Shown piece after piece: positions 45,448 to 48,265 of a DNA stretch of 49,073 nt. Both the position numbers and the translations under genes were made by a program. Below the pieces are notes generated by a model. That model saw nothing but the letters and a program-made list of their open reading frames with translations, did no database searches and was not told where the DNA came from. Position 1 is the stretch's first letter. Each line of letters opens with the position of its first letter. The DNA comes from an uncultured Sulfolobales archaeon (GTDB lineage Archaea > Thermoproteota > Thermoprotei_A > Sulfolobales > NBVN01): assembly GCA_938083005.1 (NCBI GenBank), contig CALKCU010000014.1, positions 1 to 49,073 on the forward strand. Reading direction: 5' to 3'.

Positions 45448-46434
45448 ATGGGCGATGGAAGGGGGCTGACGCTACTAGATAAGATTCAGCCGGCGGCGTT
45501 GATACTCTCGATAGCTGTTGGGCTGTTCGTCGCTCGGCTCTTTCCGCAGATCGCCGCGTCGCTGGGGCTGTTCGTCGCTCCCGGGATCTTCGTAGTCATA
45601 TACAGCGTGTTCGTCGGCACGGAGCTAGGGGAGGTTCTTAGGGCCTTCAGGAACGTGAAGCCCACCCTCATCGCGCTCTTCGTGAACTTCGTGCTAGTCC
45701 CCCCGTACGCGTGGCTCCTGGGGTACGTCTTCCTGAGGAGCTACGCCGACGTCTGGGTCGGACTGATCCTGTACCTGATCACGCCCTGCGTCGGCTGGTA
45801 CCTGATCTTCACAGACCTGGCCGGAGGCAACGTCTCCCTCGGCGTGAGCCTGCTGGCCTGGAACGTCCTCCTGCAGATAGCCCTGATGCCCGTCTACCTG
45901 TACTTCCTGGCCGGCAGGATCATCTTCATCGACTTCTCGCAGATCCTGGCGAGCGTCGGGATGTTCCTAGTCCTGCCGCTCACGCTCGGCTGGGCGACCA
46001 GGAGGCTCGTGCTGAGGGCTAGGGGGAGCGAGTACTTCCGCATGTCCGTCAAGCCCTTCCTGTCTCTCCTGAAGTTCTCCGCTCTGCTGCTGGTGATCGT
46101 GGCCATGTTCGCTTCGCAGGGAGTCCACCTGCTGGAGAACTGGTCCGTGCTCGCCCTCGTGTTCTTGCCGACGCTCGCGTACTTCTTCTCCGTGTTCGCC
46201 CTGAGCCTCTCGCTCGGGAGGGCGTTCGGTCTGCCGTACGGCGACACGGCACTGCTGGCCTTTACGACCACGGCCAGGAACTCCGAGGCATCGGTGGCCA
46301 TAGCGGTCTCCGCTTTCCCGGCCAACCCTCTAGTCGCCCTGGTGGTAGCTATCGGGCCGAGCATAGAACTGCCTGTCCTAGTTTTGCTGCTGCAGATCCT
46401 TCTGTGGATGAAGAGGAAGACCCGGACCCCGTGA
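45448..46434 (+). CDS. Acr3/bile-acid:Na+ symporter superfamily transporter
   Basis: 328 residues, about ten membrane helices. The segment YLITPCVGWYLIFTDLAGGN recalls the Acr3 motif around its essential cysteine (PC followed by a polar helix), and LAFTTTARNSEASVAIAVS matches the conserved second-half motif of the superfamily. Arsenite efflux is possible but the pattern is not a strict Acr3 match; other organic-anion transport remains open. The ATG/GTG choice is uncertain; ATG at 45448 fits the first helix. No arsR gene adjoins it. Confidence 0.65.
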   Translation: MGDGRGLTLLDKIQPAALILSIAVGLFVARLFPQIAASLGLFVAPGIFVVIYSVFVGTELGEVLRAFRNVKPTLIALFVNFVLVPPYAWLLGYVFLRSYADVWVGLILYLITPCVGWYLIFTDLAGGNVSLGVSLLAWNVLLQIALMPVYLYFLAGRIIFIDFSQILASVGMFLVLPLTLGWATRRLVLRARGSEYFRMSVKPFLSLLKFSALLLVIVAMFASQGVHLLENWSVLALVFLPTLAYFFSVFALSLSLGRAFGLPYGDTALLAFTTTARNSEASVAIAVSAFPANPLVALVVAIGPSIELPVLVLLLQILLWMKRKTRTP

Positions 46435-46639
46435 TCGGACTGGGACGAGCGATTATATGAAGAAGGGGCTTTCTCTTCTTCGCCTCGTCCCGGTACGGCC
46501 TACCGCCTCTCTACGCGCTGCTACCGCTAAGCTAGGCCGCCGTCGAAACGGATACGAGCGAGGAGACCGCGGCCGGAGGCACCTCAACGATCCCCGCCGC
46601 CGTCCGGCCGCGGATTTCGCGTCTGCGCGTCGACCTTGA
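46435..46639. other. gap after transporter
   Basis: About 205 bases. An AT-rich box CGATTATATG (46450-46459) could start a transcript. The frames here read as arginine-rich filler, so I call no gene. Confidence 0.3.
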
Positions 46640-46798
46640 ATGGCTCCTGCCCTGTCCCCGCGATGGGACTGGCGGTTCACCGGGGCTTCCGGAGAAGCAG
46701 CTCTTATCGTGCTCCTGCTCCTCAAGCAGCACCCGATAACCGTTATAGGGGTTTCTGTAGCACTGAGCTTGGTGGCCAGGTATGTGCTGGGCATTTGA
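46640..46798 (+). CDS. possible 52-residue membrane protein
   Basis: ATG at 46640 opens a frame reading MAPALSPRWDWRF, then a hydrophobic run (EAALIVLLLLKQHP, ITVIGVSVALSLVARYVLGI). Size and one or two membrane helices recall Sec61-beta-like or other small membrane proteins, but I cannot match a family. No ribosome site is visible and the first half is bland, so it may be chance. It ends ten bases before the tRNA half. Confidence 0.3.
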   Translation: MAPALSPRWDWRFTGASGEAALIVLLLLKQHPITVIGVSVALSLVARYVLGI

Positions 46799-46805
46799 GG
46801 AAGCC

Positions 46806-46843
46806 GGTGGACCTGCCGGGACTCGAACCCGAGACCTCAGCTG
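46806..46843 (-). tRNA. tRNA 3' half (split tRNA or integration-site remnant)
   Basis: Minus strand: AGCTG (anticodon-stem 3' strand), variable loop AGGTC, T-arm TCGGG-TTCGAGT-CCCGG, acceptor strand CAGGTCC and discriminator A, followed by CC. The matching 5' acceptor GGACCTG and the matching anticodon strand (CAGCT) are not found within about 120 bases upstream or 200 bases downstream. The upstream TGGTGTAAGG (46870-46879) resembles a D-arm but cannot be fitted. GCGC-ac-GTGG and CCACGCGC can pair as a leader hairpin. It is either a trans-spliced half gene or the short att copy left by an integrated element. Confidence 0.5.
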
Positions 46844-46978
46844 CGCGTGGACGCGATGTGGCCAACATCCCTTACACCACGTGCGCACCGCACGGCCCGC
46901 ACTATAGGGCCGCATCAGCCGTGTCGAAGTTGGTGACGAGAGGGCCGCTTATCTGTCATACTTGAGAGGACACATGGG

Positions 46979-48265
46979 ATGATTAAGTTGATGGACTACC
47001 GGCCGGTTGTCGGTCTATTGGTCATGCTGTACCTCGCGATAGCCCTCATATTGAGGAGCAGGAGAATATCGATACCTGTATGGAGCCTGATGGCGTTTTC
47101 CTCTTTCGTTGTCGTCGTAAGCGGACTCATAAGCGTGGATGAGCTAAAGGAGGTCGTTGACATAGATGTAATTATGTTCCTCATAGGGATGTTCAGCATT
47201 GCGAGCCTAATGGAGACTTCCGGACTATTAGGAGCTATATCCTACTGGTTCGTTGGGAGATTTAAGAGTAGGGTGAAGATACTCATCGCTTCCGCTTACC
47301 TCTTCGGATTGCTTGCCGCCATCGCAGTCAACGATACGATAGCGCTAATGGGACCTCCAATAGCTATCCTAATAGGCAAGGTCGCCGGGATAGATTACAG
47401 AGCAATGACGGTCCTGCTAATGTTCTCGCTGACGATAGGTTCCGCGATGACTCCTATCGGAAACCCGCAAAACGTCTTAATAGCGATCGGCTCGGGAATG
47501 CCTGCCCCGTTCACGCACTTCGTAACTAAGCTATTCGTCCCCACTATGATAAACCTGTTCTTAACGGCTCTGATCGTAAAGAAATACTATGGGATTGTCG
47601 ATGCCGAATTGAGTGTAAACCTCATTCCGCACGAGGAGATTAGGAGCAAGAGAGATGCCGCGTTAGGGGCGATAGGCTTGGTGCTAACGATCGCTGTCCT
47701 GATTATAAACGACGTTTTAGAGCTCTACGGCTATCCCCACATAAGTGAAAGAGGCTTCATCCCATTCATAATCTCGGCCGGCATCTACCTCCTAGCGTCT
47801 AACCCCAGGAAGCTTCTCTCGAGCATAGACTGGGGCACCATAGTTTTCTTCATAACGATGTTCATAACCATGGCTGGGATATGGAAGAGCGGCGTCATAG
47901 AGCCCATGTTTAAACTCTTCTCGTTGGGTATGAACGATAAGCTCACGATCATCCTCGGCATAACTTTAACATCGACCATAGTTAGTCAGTTGTTAAGCAA
48001 CGTTCCATTCGTAGGGCTGTATCTCAACTATTTGAGAGGCCTAGGTTTTGCCGGCGACGATGTCTCAGCCTGGCTAACCCTTGCCGCGACCTCAACAATA
48101 GCCGGCAACCTCACTCTTCTCGGAGCGGCATCAAATATCATAGTGTTAGAGGCGTTAGAGAGTAGATACAACGTTACAGTGGGCTTCGCGGATTTCATCA
48201 AGATAGGGAGTATAGTGACGGCCGTAAACGTCTTAGTGTATATCCCATTTCTGTATCTAGTCTAG
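46979..48265 (+). CDS. ArsB/NhaD/SLC13-superfamily anion transporter, foreign-looking
   Basis: 428 residues, about eleven helices. The two hallmark re-entrant loops are present: SAMTPIGNPQNVLIAIGSG (first half) and STIAGNLTLLGAASNIIVLE (second half). IAVNDTIALMGPPIAIL also fits. The substrate could be arsenite, a dicarboxylate or sodium/proton. Codon use differs sharply from its neighbours: TTA leucine, AT-ending codons and AAC/ATA runs are common, so recent transfer is likely. It starts at an ATG after the box CTTATC near 46948 and lies beside a tRNA half, a typical entry point for integrated DNA. Confidence 0.8.
   Translation: MIKLMDYRPVVGLLVMLYLAIALILRSRRISIPVWSLMAFSSFVVVVSGLISVDELKEVVDIDVIMFLIGMFSIASLMETSGLLGAISYWFVGRFKSRVKILIASAYLFGLLAAIAVNDTIALMGPPIAILIGKVAGIDYRAMTVLLMFSLTIGSAMTPIGNPQNVLIAIGSGMPAPFTHFVTKLFVPTMINLFLTALIVKKYYGIVDAELSVNLIPHEEIRSKRDAALGAIGLVLTIAVLIINDVLELYGYPHISERGFIPFIISAGIYLLASNPRKLLSSIDWGTIVFFITMFITMAGIWKSGVIEPMFKLFSLGMNDKLTIILGITLTSTIVSQLLSNVPFVGLYLNYLRGLGFAGDDVSAWLTLAATSTIAGNLTLLGAASNIIVLEALESRYNVTVGFADFIKIGSIVTAVNVLVYIPFLYLV

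What the first reader, a model, noticed from the sequence alone, without database searches (positions are those of the whole stretch)
46806..46890. Orphan tRNA 3' half
T-arm, variable loop and acceptor strand are perfect but the 5' acceptor and anticodon strands are missing nearby. A leader hairpin precedes it. Either a trans-spliced split tRNA, known in a few Thermoproteota, or the short att copy of an integrated element.
Basis: partly seen in the sequence, partly recalled or inferred. Interest (0 to 1): 0.58.

Follow-up and report, generated by a model that had tools for sequence, protein, structure and literature searches.

The report
Decayed alanine tRNA gene remnant
The orphan half of a tRNA is the broken leftover of an alanine tRNA gene beside the tail of a lost neighbour gene, so it is ordinary here; checking it showed that the same archaeon appears to make its glutamine tRNAs from separately encoded pieces elsewhere in its genome.

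Summary
In detail: on the minus strand, 46853-46806 is tRNA-derived (3'-half model 30.0 bits, next best in the window 13.1) and no 5' half lies in cis. The interpretation mostly fails. The fragment matches tRNA-Ala(CGC): 40/48 to the intact copy on contig C31. It sits where relatives keep an intact tRNA-Ala(CGC), tail-to-tail with a chromate-transporter-like gene; a 140-nt block covering both gene ends aligns to relative L166 (76%, E 1e-20). Only 33 codons of that gene remain (46700-46798). The anticodon stem is broken, U33 is lost, no tRNA-type TATA box precedes it, and none of 30 other family genomes has a counterpart. It is most likely a dead remnant. Old integration remains a rival for how it was cut; a split tRNA is very unlikely. 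A convincing split tRNA does exist elsewhere in this genome: two 5' halves of tRNA-Gln (CTG on C20, TTG on C40) share one 3' half on C70, with 15/15 paired leader bases; the 3' half with its leader occurs in 7 of 7 genomes of the genus searched. That side result is worth more than the finding.

The parts
46806..46853 (-). Remnant of tRNA-Ala(CGC): positions 28-73 plus CC
   Evidence: 40/48 identical to intact tRNA-Ala(CGC) at G000:C31:11934-12007 and 39/48 to that of L166; 3'-half model 30.0 bits
46808..46837 (-). Preserved part: variable loop, T-arm, acceptor 3' strand, A73
46838..46854 (-).
   Evidence: position-by-position comparison with the intact gene; pairing read by eye
46700..46798 (+). 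Last 33 codons, stop included, of a chromate-transporter-like gene, truncated; convergent with the tRNA remnant as in relatives
   Evidence: 29/33 residues identical to L166 and 27/33 to L167; tblastx 82-84%
45448..46434 (+). Flanking gene, SBF/bile-acid symporter family
   Evidence: PF01758; closest in genus g10 (79-81%), no full-length match in the six other genomes of the own genus
46979..48265 (+). Flanking gene, CitMHS transporter, low GC (46-51%) in a 62% GC contig
   Evidence: PF03600; closest in other genera (74-82%, g10 and g7) against at most 56% in the own genus; GC profile

Best explanation
It is a non-functional remnant of a tRNA-Ala(CGC) gene. The ancestor of this stretch had the arrangement still seen in relatives: tRNA-Ala(CGC) on one strand, its 3' end a short distance from the end of a convergent chromate-transporter-like gene. 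In this genome both genes were broken. A breakpoint near tRNA position 28 removed the 5' half and upstream flank, another removed all but the last 33 codons of the transporter, and the tRNA piece decayed. Decoding is done by the intact tRNA-Ala(CGC) on contig C31, in the place usual for the genus. Shown: homology, synteny, broken stem, intact paralogue, lack of a tRNA-type promoter. Inferred: loss of function, order of events, and that rearrangement or lateral import (both flanking genes look nearest to other genera) did the cutting.
For: 140-nt block 46718-46853 aligns to the tRNA-Ala(CGC)/transporter junction of L166 (76%, E 1e-20) and in two pieces to L167, the same contig as G015:C68 by its length. 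8 of 48 sites differ from the own intact gene, which itself differs from L166's at 2 of 76 columns; changes include 33, 37, 39, 42 and 67. All three tRNA-Ala isoacceptors are intact elsewhere. The sis-kin genes upstream of tRNA-Ala(CGC) on C31 are also upstream of it in 5 of 23 named loci; the transporter is adjacent in 2 of 23. Best TATA score 4.15 bits against 6.0-15.5 for 38 tRNA genes. The sequence above 46853 does not resemble the tRNA 5' half.
Against: T-arm and acceptor strand look clean for a pseudogene, and the anticodon CGC survives. The transporter tail changes mostly at third codon positions (13/33 identical against 32/33 at second positions), so that gene was under selection until recently, and the tRNA must have decayed next to a working gene or been cut separately. 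The relic is in no other genome of the genus searched, so whether it was inherited or imported is open. One of the two tRNA-Gln 5' halves also scores low on the promoter model (5.95), so that test is not clean.
Confidence: 0.87

Rival explanations
1. Old attachment-site remnant: an element integrated into a tRNA-Ala(CGC), leaving the original 3' half joined to the transporter, and the rest has since decayed or been rearranged. This is a version of the remnant explanation that names the cause of the cut, so its confidence overlaps with the best explanation.
For: The fragment runs from the anticodon arm to the 3' end and keeps host downstream DNA, as att fragments do; tRNA fragments made by integration are described as common in archaea (PMC9897764, passages). 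The neighbouring CitMHS gene is low GC and nearest to other genera.
Against: Longest run shared with the intact tRNA is 9 nt. The intact tRNA-Ala(CGC) is flanked by genes unlike those at the G015 locus on both sides. No second copy in the window (best other site 27/48). No PF00589 integrase in the assembly, although that assembly is 83% complete and other integrase families were not searched. Of 28 window ORFs scanned with Pfam none matched a mobile-element family; the rest were not scanned.
Confidence: 0.25
2. 3' half of a trans-spliced split tRNA whose 5' half lies in the unassembled part of the genome.
For: This genome does have a split tRNA-Gln, so the machinery is presumably present; the assembly is 83% complete; the 3' half is well kept.
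Against: No matching 5' half; neither orphan tRNA-Gln 5' half suits it (acceptor ends differ; trans-folding gain -4.6 and -7.6 against -15.2 and -16.6 kcal/mol for the true pairs). No tRNA-type TATA box. No counterpart in 30 other family genomes. All tRNA-Ala isoacceptors are present intact. Its synteny with an ordinary tRNA-Ala(CGC) explains it without a split.
Confidence: 0.02
3. Intron-containing or permuted tRNA gene in cis.
For: Many tRNAs of this genome have introns; a weak full-length RF00005 alignment exists (13.6 bits); GGGCC at 46898-46894 could pair with GGTCC.
Against: Cis search at or below shuffle level. The D-arm-like stretch near 46540 is noise (10.8 bits, 12th of 39 hits). Homology to relatives stops at 46853.
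Confidence: 0.01

Closest known systems
tRNA gene fragments in archaeal genomes (PMC9897764, passages read)
   Same: A partial, non-functional tRNA sequence in addition to an intact gene for the same tRNA.
   Different: The cases in the passages read come from element integration or a CRISPR spacer; here neither an element nor a near-identical intact copy was found.
Intact tRNA-Ala(CGC) beside a chromate-transporter-like gene in L166 (CALIBI010000040.1) and L167 (JAJHQR010000005.1)
   Same: Same gene order and orientation, 76% identity over 140 nt to L166.
   Different: There both genes are complete; here both are truncated and the tRNA stem is broken.
Split tRNAs of Nanoarchaeum, Caldivirga and Desulfurococcales (PMC3218864 and PMC4033280, passages)
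   Same: A tRNA 3' half with no 5' half beside it.
   Different: No complementary leader, no partner, no promoter, no conservation. The tRNA-Gln halves on C20, C40 and C70 of this genome do fit the class.

Membership tests
tRNA pseudogene / gene remnant | Derived from a known tRNA gene | tested here: met
   40/48 to own tRNA-Ala(CGC); 140-nt syntenic match to L166
tRNA pseudogene / gene remnant | Structure broken | tested here: met
   5' half absent; three of five anticodon-stem pairs lost, U33 lost (and reading)
tRNA pseudogene / gene remnant | Intact copy elsewhere | tested here: met
   tRNA-Ala(CGC) at G000:C31:11934-12007
tRNA pseudogene / gene remnant | Not expressed | not testable with these tools
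   Only indirect: best TATA score 4.15 bits, below all 38 tRNA genes scored
Split (trans-spliced) tRNA | A matching 5' half exists | tested here: not met
   Pattern 0 hits; 5'-half model shows as orphans only tRNA-Gln halves and an Arg-like gene at a contig end, plus hits at noise level; assembly 83% complete, 150 of 1712 candidates scored
Split (trans-spliced) tRNA | Leader and trailer base-pair | tested here: not met
   No partner; with the tRNA-Gln 5' halves the gain is -4.6 and -7.6 against -15.2 and -16.6 kcal/mol for the true pairs
Split (trans-spliced) tRNA | Bulge-helix-bulge splice motif | not testable with these tools
   Needs the partner strand
Split (trans-spliced) tRNA | Own promoter for the half gene | tested here: not met
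   4.15 bits against 15.5 for the tRNA-Gln 3' half
Attachment-site copy of an integrated element | Near-identical 3' half in an intact tRNA at the other end | tested here: not met
   Best intact copy 40/48, longest shared run 9 nt, unrelated flanks
Attachment-site copy of an integrated element | Integrase gene | tested here: inconclusive
   PF00589 none in the assembly; other integrase families not searched; assembly incomplete
Attachment-site copy of an integrated element | Fragment joined to the tRNA's old downstream flank | tested here: met
   Transporter tail ends at 46798, 7 nt from the fragment

The most novel reading that the evidence does not exclude
The 3' half is still used: a recently formed split tRNA-Ala in a lineage that already trans-splices tRNA-Gln, its 5' half hidden in the unassembled part of the genome, so that tRNA splitting is still spreading in this genus.
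Probability: 0.02. Interest if true: 0.65.

Novelty: new member of a known kind. Interest (0 to 1): 0.22.

Why it matters
Little for the fragment itself: tRNA gene remnants are ordinary, and this one removes a false lead. It shows that an orphan 3' half cannot be called a split tRNA without a partner, a leader match and conservation, and this genome offers a matched positive control. That control, a split tRNA-Gln in which two 5' halves share one 3' half that is kept in every genome of the genus searched, while other genera keep intron-containing tRNA-Gln genes, would let the origin of tRNA splitting be placed on a tree.

Tried and rejected
Intron-containing tRNA in cis: cis search to 600 nt upstream, rejected. 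Permuted tRNA with the D-arm-like sequence near 46540: 5'-half model 10.8 bits, 12th of 39 noise hits. 5'-half pattern built on GGACCTG: 0 hits in the genome. 3'-half patterns in genome contigs and viral contigs: 0 hits. BLAST of the 181-nt region first pointed to tRNA-Val, Arg and His, probably because the tRNA-Ala matches lack a long exact word; ungapped comparison corrected this. Decayed 5' half in place: alignment no better than shuffles. Repeats in 46400-47000: none. Misassigned contig: the window's first 40 kb is about as close in tetranucleotides to other stretches of this genome (0.10-0.16) as they are to each other (0.085-0.19); 40-49 kb is 0.155-0.248 from them, against 0.229-0.309 from g10 stretches, so it is less clear-cut.

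Full report
What is there. The minus strand at 46837-46808 carries a variable loop, T-arm, acceptor 3' strand and A73. ARAGORN and Rfam at gathering threshold find no tRNA in the window. A model of tRNA 3' halves built from 23 of this genome's tRNAs gives 30.0 bits, against 13.1 for the next site in the window and 35.6 or more for all 41 cloverleaf tRNAs of the genome. So the sequence is tRNA-derived but weaker than every cloverleaf gene.

No cis partner. I scored ways of completing a tRNA from up to 600 nt upstream with introns allowed. The locus scored -1.7, 7.9, 8.5 and 14.9 for 110, 200, 330 and 600 nt; shuffles averaged -0.4 (110 nt, 300 shuffles, 183 at least as good) and 9.8 (330 nt, 120 shuffles, 77 at least as good); ten real tRNAs scored 36.5 to 50.5. 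No shuffles were run for 200 and 600 nt, and the profile had been trained on tRNAs that include several of the controls. The D-arm-like stretch near 46540 is noise.

Which tRNA. Among 58 distinct T-loop-anchored sites in fetched loci, the query itself included, the closest other is the genome's own tRNA-Ala(CGC), 34 of 40. Extended to 48 nt it is 40 of 48, with changes at positions 30, 33, 37, 39, 42, 49, 59 and 67. The anticodon CGC is still in place, but pairs 27-43, 28-42 and 31-39 are lost and U33 is A (read). The 'leader hairpin' is this damaged arm.

Synteny. In G015 the intact tRNA-Ala(CGC) lies tail-to-tail with a 186-aa chromate-transporter-like protein (a name from recall; no family search was run on it). 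In the window, 46700-46798 encodes the last 33 codons of the same protein (29/33 residues identical to L166, 27/33 to L167), and the block 46718-46853 aligns to L166 at 76% over 140 nt. Upstream of 46853 and below 46700 no homology was found. A pattern scan of genome contigs gave 23 loci with tRNA-Ala(CGC): the transporter adjoins it in 2 of 23 (L166, L167), and the sis-kin genes (my labels) that precede the intact copy on C31 precede it in 5 of 23 (L155, L160, L162, L170, L173). L160 shares its contig length with G002:C5 of the own genus. So the place on C31 is found in at least one other genome of the genus, and the window holds the broken end of the other arrangement.

Timing. The transporter tail differs from L166 mostly at third codon positions (identical 25, 32 and 13 of 33 at positions 1, 2, 3), while the tRNA remnant differs at 9 of 48 sites from L166's tRNA. 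The tRNA therefore appears to have decayed while the transporter was still selected, and the transporter was truncated later. This is inference from few sites (Fisher p 0.04 for second codon positions against the tRNA).

Origin of the neighbourhood. The flanking SBF and CitMHS genes are nearest to other genera: 79-81% for SBF (g10) and 74-82% for CitMHS (g10 and g7), against no full-length match and at most 56% in the own genus. The CitMHS gene is 46-51% GC in a 62% GC contig. Tetranucleotides place the first 40 kb of the contig with this genome; the last 9 kb is less clear-cut. Lateral import of the neighbourhood is likely, but whether the remnant came with it is open.

Function. The tRNA promoter motif of this genome, GCTTATAAGC about 33 nt upstream, scores 6.0 to 15.5 bits at the 38 tRNA genes used (3 of 41 left out, at or near contig ends); the best in 120 nt above the remnant is 4.15, within shuffle range. 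The tRNA-Gln 5' half with TTG scores 5.95, so a low score alone proves little. Conservation is stronger evidence: there is no counterpart in 40 other genomes with a 181-nt query nor in 30 other family genomes with a 543-nt query, beyond T-arm similarity to ordinary tRNAs and the G015 transporter tail.

The split tRNA that holds up. Models of tRNA halves showed two orphan 5' halves, C20:2511-2544 (CTG) and C40:12463-12496 (TTG), and one other orphan 3' half, C70:21842-21871. Their trailers pair with the C70 leader at 15 of 15 positions each, one of them G-U. The joined product is accepted as tRNA-Gln by ARAGORN. The 3' half with leader and a TATA-like box is in 7 of 7 genomes of the genus, and ARAGORN finds no tRNA in the 3-kb loci of the other six. 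ARAGORN calls a cis tRNA-Gln at the match in loci of other genera, with short introns in the 11 printed whose ends resemble the split junction; in some loci of other genera it found none or an unnamed type. The 5' halves were checked only in this genome. Published relatives: a split tRNA-Gln(UUG) in Nanoarchaeum joined at 32/33, and a tRNA-Glu 3' half shared by two 5' halves there (PMC3218864 and PMC4033280, passages). In the papers listed by six literature searches and the passages read I saw no split tRNA-Gln in Thermoproteota; that is a limited search of open papers.

Verdict. The finding is the remnant of a tRNA-Ala(CGC) gene, real but ordinary. Old integration may have made the cut. A split tRNA at this locus is very unlikely.

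Noticed in passing
L102 (G000:C20:2511-2544 +), L103 (G000:C40:12463-12496 -), L104 (G000:C70:21842-21871 +): Split tRNA-Gln: two 5' halves (CTG, TTG) share one 3' half; leader and trailers pair at 15 of 15 positions; 3' half with leader present in 7 of 7 genomes of the genus, cis intron-containing tRNA-Gln in other genera.
   Followed up: partly
L105 (G000:C44:36975-37009 +): A tRNA with anticodon CCT (Arg-like) begins at a contig end and is interrupted after the anticodon; intron-containing or split cannot be told from 54 nt.
   Followed up: no
window 45448-48265: SBF and CitMHS genes nearest to other genera, the latter low in GC: likely laterally acquired.
   Followed up: partly
G000:C31:53-126 and G000:C51:6031-6104: Identical tRNA-Thr(CGT) copies with the same few flanking bases, both at contig ends: probably one gene duplicated by contig overlap.
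   Followed up: no
G000 (whole assembly): No PF00589 tyrosine recombinase at E 0.001, not even a XerA-type one; probably incompleteness.
   Followed up: no
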